This document shows, in pieces, positions 28,468 through 41,136 of a DNA stretch of 64,000 nucleotides (position 1 is the stretch's first letter; every line of letters begins with the position of its first letter). A program made the translations under genes and the position numbers. Source of the stretch: a virus. The stretch lies in the IMG/VR virus record IMGVR_UViG_3300036761_001135, positions 62,001-126,000 of that record. One strand, 5' to 3'. The notes beneath the pieces were generated by a model. It ran no database searches. It saw only the letters and a list, made by a program, of their open reading frames with translations, and had not been told where the DNA came from.

Positions 28468-28929
28468 CTAGGCGGTCTGGAGGGCAGCGTCGGCGGCGGC
28501 GGCGGTGACTTCGACCACTTCCCCTTTGAACTTGGCAGCGCCCGAGACTTTCGTCTTGGGCAGGCTGTTCTTGACATCCGCGAAGATGGCAGAGATGCGA
28601 CCTTGAGGGTCGTATTCTTCGACGAGCGCCTGGCGATTGGTCTTGTTGACCTTGGCGTCGCCGTTGACGGACTGCTTGGCGAGGTCGGAGATGATCTCGC
28701 AGGCGCGCTCGCGGGTGCATCCGCTCATCTTGAGCGCGATGATGAGGAACTCTTCGGAGAGAAGGCTCGAAGTGGAGGTCTTCTCGGTGTCAGGGGCGAT
28801 CTCCAGTGAGCCGACGATGTGGACGGTGACGTCCACGAGATGTTCGCCCGGGGTGAGGGCGGAGCGGGCGTCTTTGGCGTCCTTGTCTTTGACGGCCTTA
28901 CTGATGGCGATGATACTGGCGTTGTCCAT
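28468..28929 (-). CDS. Opposite-strand hypothetical protein
   Basis: 153 aa. Start at 28929 after AAGGAGG. Alpha/beta N-terminal half (HLVDVTVHIVGSLEIAP), helical centre with SGCTRERACEIISDLAK, Ala/Val-rich C terminus. Preceded by a good promoter (29011-28983). Being on the strand opposite to all late genes, it may be expressed at another time. Function unknown. Confidence 0.65.
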   Translation of the reverse strand: MDNASIIAISKAVKDKDAKDARSALTPGEHLVDVTVHIVGSLEIAPDTEKTSTSSLLSEEFLIIALKMSGCTRERACEIISDLAKQSVNGDAKVNKTNRQALVEEYDPQGRISAIFADVKNSLPKTKVSGAAKFKGEVVEVTAAAADAALQTA

Positions 28930-28982
28930 ATGAGCCTCCTTGTGCGACCGAGCATCCGCGCCCGGCATCTTGCCTGTCTCTC

Positions 28983-29011: not shown

Positions 29012-29049
29012 CAACTGCGTTTGCGCTTTTTTGGAGAAAAGACTTCCAT

Positions 29050-29503: not shown

Positions 29504-29872
29504 TCAGTCCCATGACAGATCCGTTTGCAGCGCGATGCACGCGCTGACGATCCGCAGGAGGCAGTGGATGCGCTCGCGCTCACGATCTTCTGTGGTCCCA
29601 CAGTCGATGACCGTGCAGCTCTTGTTGTCTGGTCTTTGGACCAGGGATTCCGGTTGGCTGAAGACATCGCGCTTGTTGAGGGCGCGAATCAGGCGCTGGG
29701 CCACGGCCGGCAGGTCGGCCAGTGGGCAGTCGCCACAGCAGTCGTTGGGGAGACCGGCAACGTCCAGCATCCTGGTCGCGTTGACGTTGGCGAAGTTAGC
29801 CCAGTATTCTGGCTCTGGGCCGTACTGACCCTTGACGGTCGGGCACTTTTTGGGTTTGAACGTGACGCTCAT
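29504..29872 (-). CDS. Cys-rich hypothetical protein
   Basis: 122 aa. Start at 29872 after GAGGAGG, overlapping the previous stop (ATGA). Cys residues at 10, 45, 46, 49, 86, 91, 104 and 112, including NDCCGDCP, suggest metal binding or disulfides. Segment YWANFANVNATRMLDVAGL precedes it. Function unknown. Confidence 0.6.
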   Translation of the reverse strand: MSVTFKPKKCPTVKGQYGPEPEYWANFANVNATRMLDVAGLPNDCCGDCPLADLPAVAQRLIRALNKRDVFSQPESLVQRPDNKSCTVIDCGTTEDRERERIHCLLRIVSACIALQTDLSWD

Positions 29873-30099
29873 GCGGCCTCCTCTGTGGCCGGCAGGAACC
29901 GGCATCCTGGGACTGTGGCCACGATGTCGGCCAGCGTGCCATACCGGATGACCATTGGCTGGTCTTTCCGGTCGTATTCGCCATCGTCGCGGGGGGCGAG
30001 GCACATGTCGTACAGGATCATGCCTTCGGGAATGGCCCAGGCGATGTCGGACTCGTCGCGGTCGTAGATGCTGGCGATGATGGTTTTCTCTACGAGCAT
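29869..30099 (-). CDS. Small hypothetical protein, first of the opposite-strand operon
   Basis: 76 aa. Start at 30099 chosen on GGGAGG 6 bp upstream; an in-frame ATG at 30132 exists with a weaker site. Acidic, alpha/beta. Coupled to the next gene by ATGA and preceded by a promoter at 30169-30142. Confidence 0.6.
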   Translation of the reverse strand: MLVEKTIIASIYDRDESDIAWAIPEGMILYDMCLAPRDDGEYDRKDQPMVIRYGTLADIVATVPGCRFLPATEEAA

Positions 30100-30169: not shown

Positions 30170-30214
30170 CCGCGTTTGCAAGCTGAGTATGCTCGGCGTT
30201 GCAGATTGACAGGA

Positions 30215-30269
30215 TGAGCACATGATGAGTAAGGTTTGAGCATGATATGAGCAAGGGGTGCGCATGCGT
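30215..30269 (+). promoter_or_regulatory. Five phased 11-bp operator repeats
   Basis: TGAGCA at 30215, TGAGTA at 30226, TGAGCA at 30237 and 30248, and TGCGCA at 30259: exactly 11 bp apart, one per DNA turn. They run from just after a TTGACA (30206-30211) through the ribosome binding site and into the start codon of a ribbon-helix-helix gene. Such proteins bind tandem direct repeats, so autorepression is likely (inference). Confidence 0.7.
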
Positions 30270-30458
30270 CTGAACGTCGAGTGCCAGGATGATGTGTTGG
30301 AAGAGTTTCGCAAGCGGGCAGACGGCCTTGGGCGATCCGTGTCGGACGTGATCCGCGAGTTGATTGTTGGGTGGGTTCGTTCGGAGCGTCGTGCTGAAGC
30401 AGATCGGCTGTCACTGGATGCACAGCTAAAACAAAGATGGAGGAATGGAGATGACTGA
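30264..30458 (+). CDS. Ribbon-helix-helix (Arc/CopG-type) regulator
   Basis: 64 aa. RLNVECQDD forms the DNA-binding strand; VLEEFRKRADGLG and SVSDVIRELIVGWV form the two helices with the conserved G-x-S-V-S-D turn. ATG 30264 has AAGGGG 5 bp upstream; GTG 30258 is less likely. It overlaps the next gene by 8 bp, so it could control the tail assembly/tape-measure operon, the divergent minus-strand operon and itself. Its presumed operators cover its own start. Confidence 0.75.
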   Translation: MRLNVECQDDVLEEFRKRADGLGRSVSDVIRELIVGWVRSERRAEADRLSLDAQLKQRWRNGDD

Positions 30459-31257
30459 GGAGACAACGACTCTGGCGAAGACGAAGGGGCATCTCATGGA
30501 TGTGTCAGCGGGCATGCTCGCTGTGGAGTTGCCGTGTGGATATCTGGATTCTTCTGGCATAGTGCATCGTGACCTCGTTGTGGGGGAGATGACTGGTTAC
30601 GAGGAGGACTTGTTGGCGGGGAAGGGGCCTATCCTGCCACGTCTGAACCAGATCATCATGAATTGCACGCGTCGCATTGGTGGATTTGAGGACCGATCTC
30701 AGATTGGTGCGGCTGTAAATGGTCTGACCGCGAGTGATCGCATGGTGGCGTTCCTGGCTATCCGGCGGGTGTCGCTCGGGGATTTCTACGACGTGAAGGT
30801 GCAGTGTCCGAACCCAGACTGTCGAGAAGAGGTTCGATATGCTCTGAATCTTGCGGACGTGGAGATTCATGCCATGGAAGATCCTACGCAGCGGGTGTTC
30901 GAGCACACGTTGAAGTCGGGAAGGGTGGTGAGTTGGCACATCATGTCGAGCACGGACGAAGAGTGGCTGACCACCAAGACGAAGAAGTCCAAGGATGACG
31001 TGTTGACGTTGGGCATCATGGCTCGCGTGGACGAAATCAATGGTGTGCCGATCAACCGGGAGAAGGACATTGTTGGGGCCATGGCGTTGCTCAAGGCGTT
31101 ACCCACGCGAGATAGAAACGACATACGTTCTCTGTTTGAGAAACATGAAGGACACGTCGATACGAATGTAGATTTTTCATGTCCTTCATGTGAGCATGAG
31201 TGGAAAGCGGAATTGAATCTGGGGCAGCCCAGTTTTTTCTTCCCATCGGCCTCGTAG
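30451..31257 (+). CDS. Tail assembly chaperone / baseplate-assembly protein, T4 gp26-type (zero frame)
   Basis: 268 aa. Start at ATG 30451 with GGAGG 7 bp upstream. Four Cys in two pairs (CPNPDC near 118-123 and CPSC near 244-247) suggest a zinc site. The overall plan (helical domain, Cys pairs, short C terminus) and its place directly upstream of the tape measure gene fit the T4 gp26/Mu gp41-type chaperones that coat the tape measure during tail assembly. Seven codons before the stop lies a -1 slippery site. Confidence 0.6.
   Translation: MTEETTTLAKTKGHLMDVSAGMLAVELPCGYLDSSGIVHRDLVVGEMTGYEEDLLAGKGPILPRLNQIIMNCTRRIGGFEDRSQIGAAVNGLTASDRMVAFLAIRRVSLGDFYDVKVQCPNPDCREEVRYALNLADVEIHAMEDPTQRVFEHTLKSGRVVSWHIMSSTDEEWLTTKTKKSKDDVLTLGIMARVDEINGVPINREKDIVGAMALLKALPTRDRNDIRSLFEKHEGHVDTNVDFSCPSCEHEWKAELNLGQPSFFFPSAS
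31233..31239 (+). promoter_or_regulatory. -1 ribosomal frameshift site
   Basis: T TTT TTC in the zero frame (AGT TTT TTC TTC): a canonical X-XXY-YYZ slippery heptamer. Slipping back one base joins 263 zero-frame codons to 70 codons of the next frame (333 aa in total). Confidence 0.7.
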
Positions 31258-31451
31258 AGCACTTGGAGGCGGAGGTCTTCTTCCTAATGGAGCTACAGGG
31301 CGGCACGTATGACAGTGTGATGGCGATGCCCTTCAGCCGACGCAAGCGGTTTGTGGAGCAGAAGCAGAACCTGGAGACGAGCCGTCGGTCCAACGAGGAG
31401 CAGGCAGCGTCCAAAGCGCGTATGCGGGCTCGCACGCGAGGCAGACGGTAG
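31239..31451 (+). CDS. Frameshift extension of the tail assembly chaperone
   Basis: 70 codons read only after a -1 shift at 31233-31239. Sequence LPIGLVEHLEAEVFF, then LMELQGGTYDSVMAMPFSRR and a Lys/Arg-rich tail. A G/GT-type chaperone pair is typical immediately before the tape measure gene. Independent initiation at ATG 31288 is possible but has only a distant GGAGG, so frameshifting is favoured. Confidence 0.6.
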   Translation, partial: LPIGLVEHLEAEVFFLMELQGGTYDSVMAMPFSRRKRFVEQKQNLETSRRSNEEQAASKARMRARTRGRR

Positions 31452-31481: not shown

Positions 31482-34400
31482 ATGAATCTGCTGGGGATAT
31501 CCTGGGGCATGGGTGCGAGGGACGTCGGCATGAAGGCCGCTGTGGACTCGGCGCAAAAGGGTATTGACAGCCTAAATGAGGGTCTTGAGAAGCAGTCCAA
31601 GATCGCGTCCAAGTCTAAGATTCCGGGATTCCTTGAGGGTTTGAAGCACTTCAACCTGGGGTCCATTGCGCAGTCGGTGCGGGAGATGGCCGGGGACACC
31701 GGAAACCTCACAAACTCATTGGAGGCCATGGGGGTAGCCAACGCGAAGACGGCCAAGCCGTTTGTTGCTGCCATGAACCTGAGCGCGGACGCGGCCCGCA
31801 AGATGGTTGGTCGGATTTCGGGCATGGCAATTGGCATGAACGTTGGTGCGGAGAGCGTGGCCAAGGTGTTCACGGAGTTCAACCGCATGACGCCAGCGGC
31901 CAAGGCGACGTCCAAGGCTCTGGGAATGACAGAGAAGGACTTCGTGAAGTTCAGCGAGACGACCGGGGTCTCGGCGGCGGACCTGAACTCGTCGATCACG
32001 GACCTGACCGGGTCGTGGAACATGGCGCCCGAGAGCGTGGCCAAGTTCCTGAACTCGATGACGGAGCTGGGCAAGAAGACGGGCGTGGGCATGACGCCCA
32101 TCGCCGGGCTGAAGGACAACCTGCAATCCTTGGACGACATCTTCGAGAAGATGCCGCCGGGGCTCCAGCGCACGGGGGCGGAGATCACGGGCCTGGTGGA
32201 GAGTTCCGTGCGGCTGGCGGGCGCCTTTGCGGCGCAGGGGGCCAGCGCAGAGGACGCCACCAAGATGGGCGCGGAGACGGCGAAGATGTTCGCCGAGCAG
32301 TCCACCGAGGTCGAGCGGATGATGAAGACCGGCATGGGCAAGGGCGACATCGCGGAGGCGTCGCCCCTGATCAAGTACCTGACCGGGCTGGGGATCGGCT
32401 TTGAGGAGGCGCGCGGCATCGTGGACGTCGGGTCGCGGGACACCGTGCAGGGCGTCCAGCGGATGCAGGCGGCGTTCACCAAGTACAACGTGAGCGGGGC
32501 GCAGCAGCAGGCCATGCTGTCCGGGCTGAGCGAGGCGATGGGCGAGGGGGTCAAGGGCCTGGGCTACCTGGCGGCGGGTGGGGACAGTGCGGCGGCGTCC
32601 CTCAAGGCCATGTCGGACATCACGGTGACGGGCAAGGACACGCTGAAGAAGTACGGGGACCAGGCGTTCAGTAGTGGGCGCACCTTGCAGGACTCCCTGG
32701 ACCTCATGAAGAGTTCGTTCGAGACGCGGCTGCGCAGCATCGCGCGCAAGGACGTGTCCAGCTTCGTGGGCGACCTGGGCCGGGCGTACAAGCAGGTCGG
32801 GGACGAGACCATCGCGCTGGCGGGAGACAAGAACTGGGGTCCGATTGTGAAGCGCCTGTCGGCGATGCAGCAGTTGGGCGCCAAGGGGCTGTTCATCAAG
32901 ATGGACGGCGGGTCGAACAAGGCTATGGCGCGGTCGTCAGCCATGATTGATGCGGTGGGAGGAGCCTTCGACTCGGTGTCAAAGTCCATGGGTCCGGTGG
33001 TCAGCATCTTCTCTGAGCTGGTGATCGTGGCCGGGCCGCTGCTCAAGGTGTTTGGGAAAATCTTGGCGAGCCCGCTAGGCAAGTTGGGTCTGTGGGGCGG
33101 CGCGATTGCCGGGCTGGCTCTGGGGTTCGACTGGTTATCGAAGTCCGGGGTGAAGCTGTCGGACGTGATGGCCAAGGTGGTGAAGTGGGTGGGCGGCGCG
33201 GCGGGCAACCTGGCGGACTGGCTGGGAAACATGGACTGGGAGGCTATTGGGAAGAAGTTGGGCGACTTCGCGGTGGAGGCGGTGACGTTCATCCCGAAGG
33301 CCATTGCGACATGGGCGAGCGGGGCGGAGTCCAACTCGGCTCTGGCCAATGCGGCCTCGACGCTCATGCAGAACATGGGGAGCGCTCTGTGGGCGGCGGC
33401 TAAGGGTCTGTTCGTGGCGACACGGGAGATTGGTAAGAAGGTCGTTGGGGCAGCATCAGAGTGGTGGAATTCGTGGACGTGGGACGATGTAGCTCCGGCA
33501 TTTGATCGTATGGAGAATAGAATTACAAAATGGTGGCTAGGTCTAAAGAAGAATCCAGAATTTGCGCAGTTTGAACTAGACACGAAGATGTGGTTCACGG
33601 AGACGTGGTGGGCGGCACAAGATGGGATACGCACTCTATTCTCCAAGGTGGGGGATGGAATTAACTCGGCAATTGCTATCCTGAACACGGCTGACTTTGG
33701 CGTGAATTTGGGGAACAAGGTGCGGTCTTTCTTCCAGGAGGGATTGGTTGGCATCGCCACATATGTGCATGAGTCGATGCGTCAGTTCGCTCATGATGCT
33801 CTTAACAGCATGTTGACGGTGGACAGCACGGCGTGGATAGGAAAGTGGTCAACGCTGGTGGCGGAGTTTGTGATCAAGTTTCAAGCGATGATGACGGGCA
33901 TCAAGGATTCGGTCAGCGGATTCATCGCAGGACTGTTCGATCCGAAGGAGACCGCCAAGAACATGGCGAGTTACTTCTTCGAGTTGCTTAAGGCCGTCAT
34001 AGATGGACTACGCGGGATCGTCTACAAGGTGGGCGAGTACACGCAGAAAATCGGCGGATTCGTCAGCGACATCGTGTATCAGGTGGCCAATCCAGATGAA
34101 CACGCCAAGAAGATGGCGCAATTGCGAGCTGAGGATCTCTTAGACCAGAAAAAGAACCTGGACGAGCGCGTTCGCATGCAAAAAGATGCATACGACAAGC
34201 AGTTGCAGATCAACAAAGGCCGGGCAGGCAAGGTGACAGGTCTGGCAGAAGTCAATCTGGCAGGAATTGGAGAGGCAGCAGAGGGAAAGAGTCCAAAACA
34301 GGTCGCCAAGGAACAGGCGTGGCGTTCTACGCAGTGGCAGAAGACGGCAGGGGAAGTTTCGGCGGCTGCGATGGAGTACGGAAAGGCGCAGGCGGCACTG

Positions 34401-35357
34401 ACGGCGGTGCAGGCGGACAAGAATCTCCTTGGGAGTGAGACGGACCTGGATGCTCAGAAGAGGATGCTCATAGCCGAGCAGGCACTAGCAGCTACGCGTG
34501 GAACTGGGATCGAGGCGGCTAAAAAGGCAGGCGTTGGTGGTGAAGGATTAACGGGAATTGGCAAGGCAATGGACGTCCTTGTGAAGCAACAGGCGGACAC
34601 TGCCAGGTACGAGGCGTTGGCGGCTGAGCAGGCGCAGAAGATGCAAGAGGCGCAGGCCAATGTGCAGGCGTTTACGCAGGCGAACGCGGCGACGATCACG
34701 GACGCGCTTGGGCAGGCGGCGATGGGGGCTAGTGACGCGGGCATCGCGGTGGTGGACGACTTCGCGCGTGGCATCAACAACCCCGATGCAAACAAGCTTT
34801 TGAAGGACTCGGTCTTTGGAGCATCGGACATGGTGAGCAAGTCGATGACGACGCACTCTCCGATCCTTGAGGGACCGTTGATGGGTGTTGGCGGAGGTGG
34901 AGAGTCGGATCCTGCATGGATTGCGGGCCGCACGCTCATGGAGTCCATGGCGCTCGGTATCGAGAGCGGTACGACGGTGGTGTCGGAGGCCGTGGCGCGG
35001 GCTTTGGACGAGTCTGTGTTTGCCACTTTCGACGCCTACAAGATCAAGATGGCGGAGTTAGCCAAGAAGAAGAGCCTCTTAAACGATGTGGCGGACATGA
35101 TGATGCGCGACTTCGGGAGAGAGGGCAGCATCGTCAACACGATCACGGTGGATGACAAGACCGAAGACGTGCGGTCTAACATGAAGGCCATGTTGAACGT
35201 CCCGGGCCTGGCCGGCGTGACGATGGCGATTATGAATGAGGGCGCGAAGCAGCGGGCGATTTTGGACAAGATCCGTGGGTTCACGCAGGTCATCGCGGAG
35301 AGCGAGTTGATCAAAAATGGCGGTTCACCAACGGCGAAGCCAGTAGTGCTTGGATAA
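31482..35357 (+). CDS. Tape measure protein
   Basis: 1291 aa, the longest helical protein of the tail module. It sets tail length and is ejected ahead of DNA. Mostly Ala/Lys/Glu helices, with a hydrophobic stretch at about 506-560 (VVSIFSELVIVAGPLLKVF, then GGAIAGLALGF) that could insert in membranes. The C-terminal ~150 residues include SKSMTTHSPILEGPLMGVGG. The DNA from about 33480 to 34600 is less GC-rich than the flanks, hinting at a replaced internal segment. Position after the frameshifted chaperone supports the call. Confidence 0.85.
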   Translation: MNLLGISWGMGARDVGMKAAVDSAQKGIDSLNEGLEKQSKIASKSKIPGFLEGLKHFNLGSIAQSVREMAGDTGNLTNSLEAMGVANAKTAKPFVAAMNLSADAARKMVGRISGMAIGMNVGAESVAKVFTEFNRMTPAAKATSKALGMTEKDFVKFSETTGVSAADLNSSITDLTGSWNMAPESVAKFLNSMTELGKKTGVGMTPIAGLKDNLQSLDDIFEKMPPGLQRTGAEITGLVESSVRLAGAFAAQGASAEDATKMGAETAKMFAEQSTEVERMMKTGMGKGDIAEASPLIKYLTGLGIGFEEARGIVDVGSRDTVQGVQRMQAAFTKYNVSGAQQQAMLSGLSEAMGEGVKGLGYLAAGGDSAAASLKAMSDITVTGKDTLKKYGDQAFSSGRTLQDSLDLMKSSFETRLRSIARKDVSSFVGDLGRAYKQVGDETIALAGDKNWGPIVKRLSAMQQLGAKGLFIKMDGGSNKAMARSSAMIDAVGGAFDSVSKSMGPVVSIFSELVIVAGPLLKVFGKILASPLGKLGLWGGAIAGLALGFDWLSKSGVKLSDVMAKVVKWVGGAAGNLADWLGNMDWEAIGKKLGDFAVEAVTFIPKAIATWASGAESNSALANAASTLMQNMGSALWAAAKGLFVATREIGKKVVGAASEWWNSWTWDDVAPAFDRMENRITKWWLGLKKNPEFAQFELDTKMWFTETWWAAQDGIRTLFSKVGDGINSAIAILNTADFGVNLGNKVRSFFQEGLVGIATYVHESMRQFAHDALNSMLTVDSTAWIGKWSTLVAEFVIKFQAMMTGIKDSVSGFIAGLFDPKETAKNMASYFFELLKAVIDGLRGIVYKVGEYTQKIGGFVSDIVYQVANPDEHAKKMAQLRAEDLLDQKKNLDERVRMQKDAYDKQLQINKGRAGKVTGLAEVNLAGIGEAAEGKSPKQVAKEQAWRSTQWQKTAGEVSAAAMEYGKAQAALTAVQADKNLLGSETDLDAQKRMLIAEQALAATRGTGIEAAKKAGVGGEGLTGIGKAMDVLVKQQADTARYEALAAEQAQKMQEAQANVQAFTQANAATITDALGQAAMGASDAGIAVVDDFARGINNPDANKLLKDSVFGASDMVSKSMTTHSPILEGPLMGVGGGGESDPAWIAGRTLMESMALGIESGTTVVSEAVARALDESVFATFDAYKIKMAELAKKKSLLNDVADMMMRDFGREGSIVNTITVDDKTEDVRSNMKAMLNVPGLAGVTMAIMNEGAKQRAILDKIRGFTQVIAESELIKNGGSPTAKPVVLG

Positions 35358-35369
35358 CAGGAGGCCGAG

Positions 35370-35735
35370 ATGCCTGCACCGACCCCGACCATACCCAAAC
35401 GGGTGCTGAACGCGACCATGGGATCGCCCATGAGGTTCATGGACGAGGAGGTCATCTGGGATCTAGAGATGTCGTCTTCGGTGCGGTTTAGAAGGCCGTT
35501 TGAGATGCCGAGTTGGGAGGGCGTGACGGACAACGAGGTGGAGTACGTCATTGAAGATCCGTGGATGCGGATCGACATCTTAGCCAAGAGTTTTTACGGA
35601 AACGAGGAGATGGGGTGGATCATTTCAGCGCGCAACAATTTGGACCTTCCAGATGTTGAGTTGTACCCAGGCCGGCGCTTGAAGATTCCTATGCGGGCTT
35701 GGGTAGAGCGCGTGTTGTTGCGGCAGGGGAGATAG
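35370..35735 (+). CDS. LysM-domain baseplate protein
   Basis: 121 aa. C-terminal DILAKSFYGNEEMGWIISAR...LYPGRRLKIP is a LysM-type motif as found in gp53-like/gpX-like baseplate proteins that bind near the tube or peptidoglycan. It directly follows the tape measure gene and has AGGAGG. Confidence 0.7.
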   Translation: MPAPTPTIPKRVLNATMGSPMRFMDEEVIWDLEMSSSVRFRRPFEMPSWEGVTDNEVEYVIEDPWMRIDILAKSFYGNEEMGWIISARNNLDLPDVELYPGRRLKIPMRAWVERVLLRQGR

Positions 35736-35737
35736 GG

Positions 35738-37117
35738 ATGTTTACCGACCCAGTAGCGCAGATCGTTATCACGAACCCGACGAGCGGGAAGGTTTGGTAT
35801 TTCAACGCGCCAGATTACCCGTTTGTGACCGGGGTGAGCTTGGCGTTTGAGTTCGCGCGCAAGGCTGCTTTGCAGGTCACATTTGACGCGCCTTACGACG
35901 TGGCGGTTGATAAGCTGTTGGGCCTGGATTCGCCGTTCACCATGGGGAACAACGTGCGGGCTCGGATTGGATATGCGAAGCATCCGACATGGTGGACGGA
36001 GTGGTTCGAGGGGTTTTTGGCGGCGGGTGGGGACGGTCTGACCTTGGATGCAAACGGCATGACGGGAACGATCACGGTGCAGGTGATTTCGGAGGGTTCT
36101 GGATACACGGTGTCTGGCGAGGCTCTGAAGGTGACCAACCCGAACGATATGTTTGTGCAGTGCGCGAAGGCGTTGGGTGTGGAGTTCAAACCGTCGCCTG
36201 GGTCGGCCACGTTGATGAATGGTTTAAATTCTGATTTGGAAAAGGGAAAGCCAACAGATGCCGAGGCGGGTTGGAAGCCGGAGGCGTTTGCTGGGATGAC
36301 GGTGTGGGAGGCGGCAGATGCCCTTGCCAAGATGGCGAATTTGAGGATGTGGATAGGCCCGAATCCGGCAAGTCCTGGTGGGGGAATACACATCATGTAT
36401 CTTGGCACTGAAGAGGAGCTATCGACGGGCGTTCTGAGCCATCTCAAGGAAGCTGGGACGGCCGGAGGAGTTGGCGTGCGGCCGACGTTTAGGTTGCGTG
36501 GGGTGGTGGATTTAAACACGTCTACGTTCCCGTGTTTGTCGTGGGCACCAGAGGGATCTGGGTTTGCGTCGTGGCTTCCGACGAACATGGTCCAGACGGG
36601 CAAGGGCGTTGAGAAGGTATTTGTAAATACAAAAACGGGCTTGATCGAGTCTGTGAATGCGAAGGCGGTAGATCGCAAGGTGGCTACGGTAGGCGCGGTG
36701 GCCACGCCTGGGCCAGAGGACATCAAGACGACGGACGCCACGGGGAAGAGTTTGACTGGAGATGAGAAGAAGGCGGACGGCAAGGAGGCGGTCATTACGA
36801 GTTCGCCGGTGCCTGGGGGAGAGGCGGGCAAGGCGCGGGCGCAGTTGGCGGCGGAGAAAGAGCGTGATGCGGGGAGCCCTTCGCAGGTGGGGGTGATCAC
36901 GTCCTTGGGATTGCCGTGGGTGGTGCCGTCTGAGCTGTGTTTCTTGCGTGGGTGCGGGATGATCTACGACGGGCCGTACCTTGTGGACAAGGCGACGCAC
37001 AAGTGGGGGCCTGGCACCTATGAGATGACATTGACGTGCCGCCGACAGGGTGACGGCACGGCGATGAAGGCTGGAGAGAAGGTCCAGACGCCCGTGGGCA
37101 CGATGCCGGAGAAGTAA
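35738..37117 (+). CDS. Baseplate hub protein, gpD/gp27-like
   Basis: 459 aa. Start at ATG 35738, 3 bp after the previous stop, with GGGGAG. Beta-rich N-terminal domain (WYFNAPDYPFVTGVSLAFEFARKA), a linker rich in Lys/Asp/Gly near 330-375, and a C-terminal hub-like ending (MIYDGPYLVDKATHKWGPG, then YEMTLTCRRQG) typical of late-control-D hub proteins. It stands between the LysM protein and the spike, as expected. Confidence 0.7.
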   Translation: MFTDPVAQIVITNPTSGKVWYFNAPDYPFVTGVSLAFEFARKAALQVTFDAPYDVAVDKLLGLDSPFTMGNNVRARIGYAKHPTWWTEWFEGFLAAGGDGLTLDANGMTGTITVQVISEGSGYTVSGEALKVTNPNDMFVQCAKALGVEFKPSPGSATLMNGLNSDLEKGKPTDAEAGWKPEAFAGMTVWEAADALAKMANLRMWIGPNPASPGGGIHIMYLGTEEELSTGVLSHLKEAGTAGGVGVRPTFRLRGVVDLNTSTFPCLSWAPEGSGFASWLPTNMVQTGKGVEKVFVNTKTGLIESVNAKAVDRKVATVGAVATPGPEDIKTTDATGKSLTGDEKKADGKEAVITSSPVPGGEAGKARAQLAAEKERDAGSPSQVGVITSLGLPWVVPSELCFLRGCGMIYDGPYLVDKATHKWGPGTYEMTLTCRRQGDGTAMKAGEKVQTPVGTMPEK

Positions 37118-37120
37118 GTT

Positions 37121-38086
37121 ATGTTTGGCAACAGGAGCGATTCACTACGCCTGGCAACTGACCCGATTGGGTGGCTGCGGGACACCCTTGCGCGGATCGG
37201 CCTAGAGGGCTTTGCGCGACGATTCTACGGCCTTTACCCAGGTGTGGTGGTGAGCAACGCGGACCCAGACAATCGAGGCAGGATTCAAGCGCTGTGCCCT
37301 GCTGTTGGACTCAATACGGCGGACCAGTTGGGGCCGAGCTGGTGGGCGTTGCCGTGCATGCCTGGTTTGTCCGTGGACCCAGACACCAAGCAGGCGAGCG
37401 GGATCTTCCATCCGCCGGACGCGAATGCCCAGGTGTGGTTGATGTTTCAGCATGGAGATCCAGAGTTCCCGGTCTACATGGGCGGGTACATGGCGGCGGA
37501 CAAGGCGAGCGATACGTTCGACGCGGAGACCGCATTGAGGAAGGGATTTCGCACGCGCACGGGGCACTACCTGCGCATGTCGGACGACCCGGAGGATCTG
37601 CACCTCATCATTGGCAAGGGTGATGGAGCGGGCGGGCCGAGCCCCGCGTTCCTGACGGTGGACAAGGACGGTTCGACACTGCTCACCAACGAGATGGGCA
37701 GCATGCTGTTCATGAACGCCACGACCCCGGAGACAAGCTTGATGACGGCCAACGACAAGGGCGAGGTCACGGCGATGCTGATGCTGGGGGACGACAAGAT
37801 CACGCTGGCCACGAAGAGCGGAGGAGCCATCGGAATCGACGGCAAGAATATCACCATGACGGGGGACAACGTGGTGGCGGATGCGAGCAAGCAGTTTGTA
37901 GCGAACGCTGGGACGGTCATGTTGGGAAAGGGGGCCTCGGAGCCGGCGGTACGCGGGATGAAGTTGATGACGTGGGCTCTGGCGCACCAACATGTGTGTG
38001 CGGCTCCAGGAGCGCCAACAACTCCAGGGCCGCTGCCTCCGCCTATGCTGTATAAAGAGCTGAGCGAAGTCGTGTTTATTCGATAG
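37121..38086 (+). CDS. Baseplate central spike, gp5/gpV OB-fold type
   Basis: 321 aa. N-terminal OB-fold signature YGLYPGVVVSNADPDNRGRI, then WWALPCMPG, VWLMFQHGDPEFPVYMGGY. The C-terminal half has regular short strands (DKDGSTLLTNEMGS, KITLATKSGGAIGIDGKNIT), consistent with a triple beta-helix spike. No lysozyme domain is inserted, unlike T4 gp5. Confidence 0.75.
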   Translation: MFGNRSDSLRLATDPIGWLRDTLARIGLEGFARRFYGLYPGVVVSNADPDNRGRIQALCPAVGLNTADQLGPSWWALPCMPGLSVDPDTKQASGIFHPPDANAQVWLMFQHGDPEFPVYMGGYMAADKASDTFDAETALRKGFRTRTGHYLRMSDDPEDLHLIIGKGDGAGGPSPAFLTVDKDGSTLLTNEMGSMLFMNATTPETSLMTANDKGEVTAMLMLGDDKITLATKSGGAIGIDGKNITMTGDNVVADASKQFVANAGTVMLGKGASEPAVRGMKLMTWALAHQHVCAAPGAPTTPGPLPPPMLYKELSEVVFIR

Positions 38087-38104
38087 AGGTGAGGATGAGG
38101 CCAA

Positions 38105-38464
38105 ATGTCCAAGTGCAAGATCCCAACTCCGCCGACCTTGGCGCTGGCCATTCCGATCCCAGGCATCCCGTTTGCGATGCCTGCGATCCCGACTTTGCCC
38201 GCGATACCGGCGATGCCTGCGATCCCTGGATTGACTATGCCGACGTTGCCGACGTTGGCACTGGCGATCCCGATCCCGAGCCCGCCGTTTGCATTGCCTG
38301 CGATTCCGACGTTGCCAAGCATGCCGAGTTTGCCATCGATCCCGAATCCGCCGAGCATGCCGACGTTGGCGCTGGCCATTCCGATCCCTGGATTGCCGTT
38401 TGCACTGCCCGCGCTGCCGAGCTTGCCAGCGATGCCCGGACTTCCAAGTTGTCCGCTAGACTGA
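38105..38464 (+). CDS. Proline-rich triple-repeat protein next to the spike
   Basis: 119 aa, about one third Pro. Three tandem units each begin with TLALAIPIP and continue FA(M/L)PA-(I/L)-P with MPSLP/IPAMP spacers; there are single Cys residues near both ends (MSKCK and SCPLD). The position after the spike gene recalls small tip/adaptor proteins. The reading frame is confirmed by its start and by the neighbouring stop; another open frame over the same bases is a by-product of the repeats. Confidence 0.6.
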   Translation: MSKCKIPTPPTLALAIPIPGIPFAMPAIPTLPAIPAMPAIPGLTMPTLPTLALAIPIPSPPFALPAIPTLPSMPSLPSIPNPPSMPTLALAIPIPGLPFALPALPSLPAMPGLPSCPLD

Positions 38465-38467
38465 CAC

Positions 38468-38483
38468 GCGAACCTGGGTTCGC
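38468..38483. repeat. Dispersed palindrome copy 7
   Basis: GCGAACCTGGGTTCGC, 4 bp after the stop at 38464. Confidence 0.85.
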
Positions 38484-38507
38484 CTCAAACTGTGATAGGA
38501 TGCGTTC

Positions 38508-38939
38508 ATGCCGAATGTGAACCAACTCCCGCCTCTGTTGGACGCTGACATCATGAGGACGTTGGCGTTTCCATTTCAGATGGGTTTGTCTGGATTTCCA
38601 GCCATGAGCGGATCGGAGCGGGCGATTTACCAGTCGATACTTTCGTTGATGATGACTGGTACAAACGAGAGGTTGATGCATGTGGATTTGGGAGTGAATT
38701 TGCACAGGTTGGTATTCGACAACATGACGCCGTTATTGCAGGCGCGCATTGCGACCGAGGTGACGCGTGCCATTGAGACCTGGGAGCCGCGTGCCGAGGT
38801 GATGGGTGTAGATTCTCGCATGGGCGACAAGTCGGACGGTGTGACGACGGCGATCATTGTGGACGTGCTGTACCGCGTGGCGGGGCAGCCTCAGAGCCAG
38901 CAGGTGCAGATCCCGCTGGTCGGGAGCCCAAATGGCTAA
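38508..38939 (+). CDS. Baseplate wedge protein, gp25-like
   Basis: 143 aa. The gpW/gp25 pattern: PFQMGLSGFPA, then ERAIYQSILSLMMTGTNERL and DLGVNLHRLVFDNM, then TRAIETWEPR and a terminal strand VDVLYRVAGQ. Slightly overlaps the next gene. Confidence 0.75.
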   Translation: MPNVNQLPPLLDADIMRTLAFPFQMGLSGFPAMSGSERAIYQSILSLMMTGTNERLMHVDLGVNLHRLVFDNMTPLLQARIATEVTRAIETWEPRAEVMGVDSRMGDKSDGVTTAIIVDVLYRVAGQPQSQQVQIPLVGSPNG

Positions 38940-41136
38940 CGATACCCATGCTCCATTGGTGGCGGATCGCGCCCCGCTGAACTCTGTGAAGTGGGCGGCC
39001 CGGGACTATCCGAGCATCTTCGACGACCTGTTGCGGCGGCTCAAGCTGTTGTATCAGGAAACATACAACGACTACGCGACGACGACGCAGGGCATCATGC
39101 TGATCGAGATGATGGCCTACGCCACGGCGCAGATTCAGTGGTACATGGACCGCATCGCGTCCGATTGCTTCCTGGACACGGCGCGCACGCATACGGCGGT
39201 TGGGCGCATTGTGCGGCAGTTGGGGTACAAGCTGCGGCCGGCGAGTGCGGCTTCGACGACGTTGACCTTGACCTTCCCTGACGGCACGCCTGGACCGTTT
39301 GTGATGCCGGCTCGCTGGCGTTTTCAGGGGCCAAATGGGCTTGTGTACGAGTCCTATGCTCCGCTCACGGAAACGGCAGCGTTGCCACCTGGAACCACGC
39401 GCACGATCATGGTGCGGCAGGGGGATTCTCGGATTCTGACGTTCACGGGAAACGGCCAGGCGAACCAGGTTTATAATCTCTCGGGAATCCCGGAATCTCG
39501 CTATCTCGCAGACCTGAGCGTTGAGTGTTGGGTGGACGGATTGGAGTGGGAAGAGCGGTCGTTTCTAACCTACGTTGCAGACGAGCAGTTCGAGGTGGAA
39601 TATCTGACCGAGCCCCCGAAGGTGCGGTTTGGAGATGGGATTGCAGGGGCGATTCCGCCATTGGGTGCCGAGGTAAAGTTTCGGTTTGTGATTATCGACG
39701 GGGTGAAGGGAAACAATCCGAAGTCGGGGAGCATTCGATCCAGCATCGACACGTTGGTGGTAGGCGGCACGCTGGTCACGATGACGGTGTCGAATCCGGT
39801 ATCTCCGAGCGGCGGTGCGGACCCCGAGACGGTGGAGCACGCCAAGAATCTGGCACCGTTGTCCTTCGCGGCGCGCGGTGTGGCGATTACCGAGAACGAC
39901 TACAACGCGCTGTCCAACAGCTTTGTGGACGCGCTCTATGGGTCGGTGGCCAAGGCGTATGCCTTCAACCCGCGCGGCACGTATTCAGACATCACGTTTG
40001 ACACGCTGGTAGTGGAGATTGTCGGTGCGCTCATCGTGTATGTGGATGCAGTCTCGTTATTGGAGACGAGCATTGCGGACGACGTGGCAGCCATCACGCC
40101 ATTGCTGGAGTCCATCAACGCCGACCTGGTAGATTTAGAGGAGTTGCGCGTCGATCAGGAGGGGTTTGCTGGGTCGGCGAAGTCGATCATTGGTGGGGCG
40201 CAGGCGAACTGCACGACGGCCGAGTCCACGCTGGTCGGAATCAAGACCACGGCGGAAGACCAGAAGGCGGCGTTACAAGATCTGGTCGATTATGTGCTGA
40301 CGAATGTGACTGCCGGGGCGACGCGGGACTATATCGAGGCGGATCTGAACGCGGCGATAGCGCAGGCGACGACGATTGTACAGAAGTCCACGCAGGCCAC
40401 AGGGGATGTCCAGACGGCCCAGAACGCCATGGGCAACGCTATTTCGAACGCGATCAATCCGCTGTTGGAGACGATTACGGATTTGTCTCCAACCTCGCCT
40501 GACACGTCGTTACCTCAGATCATCGCAGCGATGACGGCGGACACAGCGGGCATTGACGCGCTCTTGCCTGGGATGACAGCGGACGCGACGGCCATGGTAG
40601 GTGCTTCGCAGGCGTTGAAGACGGACATCGACGCTCATTTGGCGAGCATGCAGGTACGGATTGGAGAGTTGTTCTCGGACGACTGTTTGAGCAACTACGT
40701 ACAGGTGCCGATTCTGGCGCAGGACGCGGATGGAAACTACATCGCTCCTTCGGCCGGGATCATGGCGAGTCTCCAGACGTACTTGGACGGGGTAAAAGAG
40801 GTCACGCAGCAGGTTGAGGTCATCGACGGGTCTCCAATTCTGGTGCCGGCGCAGATTGCGATCCAGGCGCTAGTCGGTTCTGCCTACATTTACGACGAGG
40901 AGATCGCTAAGGTGAGATCTGCGGTGATTGAGTTACTCAAGGCGAGGGATTTCAACACGCCGTTGTACCTATCTCAGCTTTACGATACGGCGAAGAAGGC
41001 GAGCATTGGATTCTCGCATGTGAACATTCAGATCGCGGGTCCGGTGGAGTTCTTGGACGCGGGCGGCAACTTGGTTCCGCCTGAAAACCGGATCATCACG
41101 TTGGGTAGCCTCACCATTACGCAGCTCTACTCGTAG
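38932..41136 (+). CDS. Baseplate wedge protein, gp6/gpJ-like
   Basis: 734 aa. Start at ATG 38932 (GGGAG), overlapping the gp25-like stop. N-terminal RDYPSIFDDLLRRLKLLYQE and IMLIEMMAYATAQIQWYMDR are typical of gp6/baseplate J proteins, as is ARGVAITENDYNALSNSFVD near 315. A long helical insertion (about 375-580) precedes the conserved C-terminal domain (VEVIDGSPILVPAQIAIQAL). With gp25 it forms the wedge that triggers sheath contraction. Confidence 0.8.
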   Translation: MANDTHAPLVADRAPLNSVKWAARDYPSIFDDLLRRLKLLYQETYNDYATTTQGIMLIEMMAYATAQIQWYMDRIASDCFLDTARTHTAVGRIVRQLGYKLRPASAASTTLTLTFPDGTPGPFVMPARWRFQGPNGLVYESYAPLTETAALPPGTTRTIMVRQGDSRILTFTGNGQANQVYNLSGIPESRYLADLSVECWVDGLEWEERSFLTYVADEQFEVEYLTEPPKVRFGDGIAGAIPPLGAEVKFRFVIIDGVKGNNPKSGSIRSSIDTLVVGGTLVTMTVSNPVSPSGGADPETVEHAKNLAPLSFAARGVAITENDYNALSNSFVDALYGSVAKAYAFNPRGTYSDITFDTLVVEIVGALIVYVDAVSLLETSIADDVAAITPLLESINADLVDLEELRVDQEGFAGSAKSIIGGAQANCTTAESTLVGIKTTAEDQKAALQDLVDYVLTNVTAGATRDYIEADLNAAIAQATTIVQKSTQATGDVQTAQNAMGNAISNAINPLLETITDLSPTSPDTSLPQIIAAMTADTAGIDALLPGMTADATAMVGASQALKTDIDAHLASMQVRIGELFSDDCLSNYVQVPILAQDADGNYIAPSAGIMASLQTYLDGVKEVTQQVEVIDGSPILVPAQIAIQALVGSAYIYDEEIAKVRSAVIELLKARDFNTPLYLSQLYDTAKKASIGFSHVNIQIAGPVEFLDAGGNLVPPENRIITLGSLTITQLYS

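What the first reader, a model, noticed from the sequence alone, without database searches (positions are those of the whole stretch)
30206..30458. Self-covering operator: five 11-bp repeats leading into a ribbon-helix-helix gene
TGAGCA-type hexamers at 30215, 30226, 30237, 30248 and 30259 are spaced exactly 11 bp and run over the promoter, ribosome binding site and start codon of an Arc/CopG-type gene. Ribbon-helix-helix dimers bind such phased direct repeats. The array also faces the divergent minus-strand promoter at 30169-30142, so one protein may switch between the two operons.
Basis: partly seen in the sequence, partly recalled or inferred. Interest (0 to 1): 0.72.

Follow-up and report, generated by a model that had tools for sequence, protein, structure and literature searches.

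The report
Self-regulating operator of phage baseplate operon
Five copies of a short DNA word, spaced about one helical turn (11 bp) apart, sit on the promoter and start codon of a small phage DNA-binding-protein gene that leads the baseplate (tail) operon, and the same word recurs at this promoter in most of its distant phage relatives, so the protein very probably controls its own operon.

Summary
The array is real: TGAGCA, TGAGTA, TGAGCA, TGAGCA, TGCGCA at 30215-30264, exactly 11 bp apart. It is unique in the 168,688-bp phage record and far beyond chance. It overlaps the -10, RBS and start codon of a 64-aa ribbon-helix-helix (RHH) gene (ATG at 30264).

Comparison strengthens the claim. The gene lies directly upstream of a T4-type baseplate gene in distant phages (RHH identity down to ~26%). 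In 9 of 10 lineages TGAGTA/TACTCA is the top shared hexamer before the RHH gene: 12 copies against 0.17 expected. In 12 records searched, the 11-bp tandem pair occurs only at this promoter. Copy number and orientation vary, but paired sites lie 11 or 22 bp apart. One relative has a different hexamer in the same register, one has no recognisable site, three have single sites.

Best explanation: cooperative RHH dimers bind the array and repress (autoregulate) the promoter of the baseplate operon that the gene leads. Binding and repression are inferred, not shown. The 'switch between two operons' idea is not supported: the array does not touch the divergent promoter, and their spacing drifts freely.

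New member of a known kind (RHH autoregulator), with an unusual conserved position and a clear evolutionary record.

The parts
30215..30269 (+). Array of five 11-bp units (TGAGCACATGA, TGAGTAAGGTT, TGAGCATGATA, TGAGCAAGGGG, TGCGCATGCGT), the proposed RHH operator
30206..30235 (+). Candidate promoter of the RHH/baseplate operon: TTGACA 30206-30211, N18, TAAGGT 30230-30235. The TA of repeat 2 (TGAGTA) is the TA of the weak -10. The same N18 layout is in L004 (TACGAT) and L005 (TACGCT)
   Evidence: not returned by the consensus scan because the -10 is weak
30253..30258 (+). Shine-Dalgarno-like AAGGGG inside repeat 4
   Evidence: read directly
30264..30458 (+). Ribbon-helix-helix gene, 64 aa (RHH_1; Arc-like); conserved DNA-facing strand R2-L3-N4-V5-E6
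30445..31257 (+). T4-type baseplate gene (T4_baseplate, phrog_150), overlapping the end of the RHH gene and so probably co-transcribed
31482..35357 (+). Large ORF of 1291 aa, candidate tape-measure protein, next in the same direction (after an 83-aa ORF at 31200-31451)
   Evidence: position and synteny; no convincing family match
35370..41136 (+). Further same-strand tail/baseplate genes: wedge subunit 35370-35735, tail protein 35738-37117, Phage_base_V protein 37121-38086, wedge subunit 38932-41136
30185..30197 (.). Extra TGAGTA/TGCTCG inverted pair between the two promoters, 30-31 bp before repeat 1 and so out of the 11-bp phase; possible accessory site
   Evidence: present only in the near-identical L002/L003
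30142..30170 (-). Divergent promoter GTTGACA-N16-TAAATT of the minus-strand small-gene island; GTTTGTCAAC box conserved in most relatives; not covered by the array
29869..30099 (-). First gene of the divergent island (76 aa from MLVEKT..., start judged from the L005 homologue and an SD), no family match

Best explanation
The array is the operator of the RHH protein encoded directly after it. RHH dimers insert a two-stranded ribbon (R2, N4, E6 in each chain) into the major groove at TGAGYA hexamers. Neighbouring dimers lie about one helical turn (11 bp) apart on one face of the DNA and bind cooperatively. Occupancy blocks the -10, start site, RBS and start codon of the RHH promoter, so the protein represses its own gene and the baseplate operon that the gene leads (negative autoregulation). 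Shown: the array, its uniqueness, the gene family, the synteny, and conservation of the hexamer and the 11-bp phase at this promoter in most relatives. Inferred: binding, cooperativity, the sign of regulation (repression), and the extent of the operon controlled.
For: RHH family and fold. Array unique and non-random. The only RHH_1 match in the record lies next to the only array. TGAGTA is the top de novo hexamer, in 9 of 10 lineages upstream of the gene (maximum for any hexamer in 500 simulations 7, for TGAGTA 3). 12 copies in the 65-nt upstream stretches against 0.17 expected from the same loci. In-phase pairs of sites with at most 1 mismatch: 22 at period 11 and 0-1 at every other period from 7 to 16, null maximum 5. 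TGAGYA-N5-TGAGYA occurs in 11 related records only at RHH promoters (with for L024). L022 carries the inverted form at 11 bp, L046 the inverted form at 22 bp, and L068 three TGTGTM sites at -27, -16 and -5, the same register as the window. RHH and baseplate genes overlap.
Against: No binding or expression data. L067 has no recognisable site, and L021, L025 and L027 have only one exact site. The two loci added after the motif was defined (L067, L068) both lack TGAGYA, so the hexamer failed its small held-out test. Window, L004 and L005 are related and dominate the phase statistic; without them the excess is 3 pairs against 0.4 (P = 0.01). Part of the conservation of units 4-5 could be RBS and start-codon constraint. 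Activation rather than repression cannot be excluded from sequence.
Confidence: 0.8

Rival explanations
1. The RHH protein binds the array and activates rather than represses: bound dimers recruit host RNA polymerase to a weak promoter (poor -10) to start the baseplate operon late in infection.
For: The -10 is weak in window, L004 and L005 (TAAGGT, TACGAT, TACGCT); L021, L022 and L024 also lack a good -35. Dual-acting viral RHH regulators exist (AvtR: PMC5569661).
Against: The sites overlie the -10, start site and RBS, a position typical of repression. L025 and L027 have good -35 and -10 boxes with the site just downstream.
Confidence: 0.1
2. The RHH protein is a two-way switch: the array represses the rightward promoter while controlling the divergent minus-strand promoter.
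For: The divergent promoter box GTTTGTCAAC is conserved in most relatives. An extra TGAGTA/TGCTCG pair lies at 30185-30197, about 16 bp from the minus -35.
Against: The array lies about 46 bp from the minus -35 here. The spacing varies widely among relatives while the sites stay at the RHH start. The extra pair is out of phase and seen only in near-identical phages.
Confidence: 0.1
3. The array is a ParR/parC-like centromere for DNA segregation: ParR, also RHH, binds 11-bp direct repeats in plasmid R1.
For: RHH protein and 11-bp iterons; R1 ParR needs at least two 11-bp repeats (PMC9426499). ParG is the top fold match, though weak.
Against: No partner motor gene next to it; the gene leads a baseplate operon. 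Most relatives outside the window clade have 1-2 sites. The StbA/ParM search found nothing, but its controls were silent too, so it is uninformative.
Confidence: 0.03
4. The repeats are a by-product of promoter, RBS and start-codon sequence (TGAGTA as a general phage -10, repeats by slippage) with no RHH binding.
For: TGAGTA overlaps the -10 in several lineages and repeat 5 overlaps the start codon.
Against: TTGAGTANNNT is not used elsewhere in the window as a promoter-like motif. TGAGTA is rare in the loci outside these upstreams. Orientation flips while 11- or 22-bp spacing is kept.
Confidence: 0.05

Closest known systems
P22 Arc repressor and CopG (small autoregulatory RHH repressors)
   Same: Size, fold (Arc and CopG among the best fold matches), Arc-like PHROG, alternating DNA-facing strand residues including an Asn, and dimers placed on adjacent half-sites over a promoter (the last two from general knowledge of Arc/CopG).
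   Different: Five tandem direct hexamers instead of one two-half-site operator; a different recognition word; located at the head of a baseplate operon.
ParR/parC of plasmid R1
   Same: RHH protein; 11-bp direct repeats (PMC9426499).
   Different: No adjacent segregation motor; sites few in most relatives; tail-gene context.
RelB/relO and omega/heptad operators
   Same: RHH proteins reading repeated 6- or 7-bp words at their own promoter, with spacing critical for cooperativity in RelB (PMC2812701; omega in PMC4803016).
   Different: RelB uses hexads packed in 12-bp half-sites and omega uses 7-bp steps; here the step is 11 bp. No toxin partner gene is adjacent.
Archaeal virus RHH regulators F55 and AvtR
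   Same: Virus-encoded RHH regulators; F55 reads tandem repeats and AvtR spreads along DNA between two promoters (PMC5569661).
   Different: Archaeal viruses; unrelated words and gene context.

Membership tests
Ribbon-helix-helix (Arc/CopG) proteins | N-terminal strand, two helices, RHH profile match | tested here: met
   RHH_1 31.9 bits over a cut-off of 20.5; model mean pLDDT 88 with helices 9-21 and 26-62 (no strand assigned in the monomer model; in RHH proteins the ribbon forms in the dimer); fold matches are mostly RHH proteins but weak (no match with E <= 0.001)
Ribbon-helix-helix (Arc/CopG) proteins | Alternating DNA-facing and buried residues in the strand, G-x-S loop | tested here: met
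   R2, N4, G23, S25, S27 invariant in 12 sequences
RHH autoregulators | Repeated operator sites over the gene's own promoter | tested here: met
RHH autoregulators | Protein binds the sites and represses transcription | not testable with these tools
   needs footprinting and reporter assays
ParMRC partition systems | ParM/StbA motor gene next to the RHH gene and iterons | tested here: not met
   neighbours are baseplate and small island genes; the genome-wide StbA search was uninformative
RHH antitoxins | Adjacent toxin gene | tested here: not met
   the next gene is T4_baseplate

The most novel reading that the evidence does not exclude
A conserved autoregulatory RHH/operator module sets the expression level or timing of the baseplate operon in a wide group of uncultivated large phages. 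Its operator evolves freely in copy number, orientation and even hexamer (TGAGYA to TGTGTM) while locked to an 11-bp register.
Probability: 0.3. Interest if true: 0.6.

Novelty: new member of a known kind. Interest (0 to 1): 0.45.

Why it matters
As far as I know, dedicated local regulators at the head of structural tail operons are not a standard feature of phage regulation, and the two literature searches aimed at this context found no described example (open-access papers only). If confirmed, it gives a small, testable model of how a repressor and its operator co-evolve: phase is kept while word, number and orientation change. It also offers a handle on how large phages may limit baseplate protein levels.

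Tried and rejected
Relatives in cultivated phages: none for the RHH protein or the 1291-aa protein, and only distant baseplate matches, where BRock has no gene annotated between its tail and baseplate proteins. GTDB genomes: no RHH relatives and one weak baseplate match. A second operator in the same genome: TGAGTACGATTTGCTCA at G000:27049 lies inside a coding frame with no -35 seen, and about 0.16 such matches are expected by chance in the record (my estimate), so it is probably chance. ParM search uninformative. The minus-promoter motif GGTTARATTGAGAGACA, taken from L004/L005, was searched in the window; it marks only the other minus promoter at 29012. L029, L034 and L039 carry more distant RHH genes; their promoter regions could not be aligned with confidence. 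L029 was kept in the hexamer count (it is the one of ten without TGAGTA within 80 nt), L034 and L039 were left out of the motif tests.

Full report
The observation. TGAGCA (30215), TGAGTA (30226), TGAGCA (30237), TGAGCA (30248) and TGCGCA (30259) are exactly 11 bp apart. The longest run of TGNGYA at period 11 in 200 simulated 64-kb sequences was 3, seen once; here it is 5. In the whole 168,688-bp virus record the triple pattern, and the double pattern with one mismatch, occur nowhere else.

The gene. The ORF at 30264-30458 encodes 64 aa and matches RHH_1 above the curated cut-off and an Arc-like PHROG. It is the only RHH_1 match in the record. The AlphaFold model matches ParG, Arc, PutA and CopG best, with modest scores (best E 0.12), as expected for a short monomer of an obligate dimer fold. 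The N-terminal strand residues R2 and N4 and the G-x-S loop are invariant in 12 relatives; position 6 is E, D or Q. Downstream, overlapping by 14 nt, is a T4-type baseplate gene, then an 83-aa ORF, a 1291-aa candidate tape measure and further baseplate proteins in the same direction. Upstream is a minus-strand island of small genes, so rightward transcription of the baseplate genes most simply starts at the RHH promoter (inference).

Relatives. Searches with the RHH and baseplate proteins gave related loci in viral contigs. The order RHH then baseplate gene is kept in phages whose RHH proteins are only 26-38% identical to this one. L004 has an extra RRXRR/HNH gene inserted between the two.

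The operator in relatives. Reading 200 nt before each RHH gene shows the same word in most. In a de novo count over 10 lineages, TGAGTA/TACTCA was the commonest hexamer, in 9 of 10; in 500 simulations no hexamer exceeded 7 and TGAGTA never exceeded 3. In 65-nt upstream stretches of 11 lineages there are 12 copies against 0.17 expected from the same loci. Sites with at most one mismatch lie at -49, -38, -27, -16, -5 in the window; at -38, -27, -16, -5 in L005; and at -38, -16, -5 in L004 once a 15-nt shift of the start codon is allowed for, with no out-of-phase sites in any of the three. L024 has two direct copies 11 bp apart, L022 two inverted copies 11 bp apart, and L046 two inverted copies 22 bp apart. 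Summed over lineages there are 22 in-phase pairs at period 11 and at most 1 at any other period from 7 to 16; without the window clade the excess is smaller (3 against 0.4, P = 0.01).

Limits. The two loci found after the motif was defined are exceptions: L067 has no TGAGYA, and L068 has TGTGTC, TGTGTA and GACACA at -27, -16 and -5, a different word in the same register. The L068 reading was made after looking and is suggestive only. L021, L025 and L027 have single exact sites. The phased array is therefore common but not universal.

Across genomes, TGAGYA-N5-TGAGYA occurs in 11 related records only in G001, G002 and G007, in each case at the RHH promoter, with no hits of the reversed control pattern. 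The inverted form occurs at the L022 operator and once in a coding region of the window's own record, which I take as chance.

Promoters. In window, L004 and L005 the rightward promoter reads TTGACA-N18-TAAGGT, TACGAT and TACGCT, with the TA of TGAGTA forming the start of the -10. In L022 and L024 the -10-like TAGAAT/TAGGAA likewise begins with the TA of TGAGTA; in L021 the corresponding word is degraded (AAGTAGGAT). In L025 and L027 the inverted site directly follows a good -10. The minus-strand promoter box GTTTGTCAAC is conserved in most relatives, but its distance from the RHH start varies from about 70 to 169 nt. The array does not overlap it, so the two-operon switch is not supported.

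Mechanism. RHH dimers commonly read short repeated words at their own promoters, and spacing is critical to cooperativity (RelB, PMC2812701; R1 ParR with 11-bp repeats, PMC9426499; viral RHH regulators that oligomerise along DNA, PMC5569661; RHH autorepression of an operon in plasmid RA3, PMC4175270). By analogy, the 11-bp array should hold several dimers on one face of the helix and block the promoter, RBS and start codon of the RHH/baseplate operon. Repression rather than activation is inferred from position.

Verdict. The array is real, conserved in kind, and most likely the autoregulatory operator of the adjacent RHH gene. It is a new member of a known kind; the notable points are its position at the head of a baseplate operon and the evolutionary record of phase conservation.

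Noticed in passing
L004:6230-7465: An RRXRR/HNH-endonuclease-like gene (PF14239, phrog_32617) lies between the RHH and baseplate genes; it is absent from L005 and the window.
   Followed up: partly
L021, L022, L024, L046, L068, just before the RHH start codon: A -10-like box ends only about 6-9 nt before the ATG and no Shine-Dalgarno is seen, so the RHH mRNA is probably leaderless in these lineages.
   Followed up: partly
window 29012-28983 (minus strand): A second exact GTTGACAAAC with N17 and TAGATT, a promoter-like match before the minus-strand gene at 28468-28968, shares a -10 context (GGTTARATTGAGAGACA) with the divergent promoter of L004.
   Followed up: partly
L067, before 2781: The RHH reading frame stays open upstream and could add about 18 residues (MHSDGMCDENVLISDGDG) from an ATG close behind a TAGAAT box.
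   Followed up: no
L005, about 70-95 nt before the RHH start: A perfect hairpin GAGCACCG-CTC-GGTGCTC lies between the divergent promoters; possible terminator or extra site.
   Followed up: no
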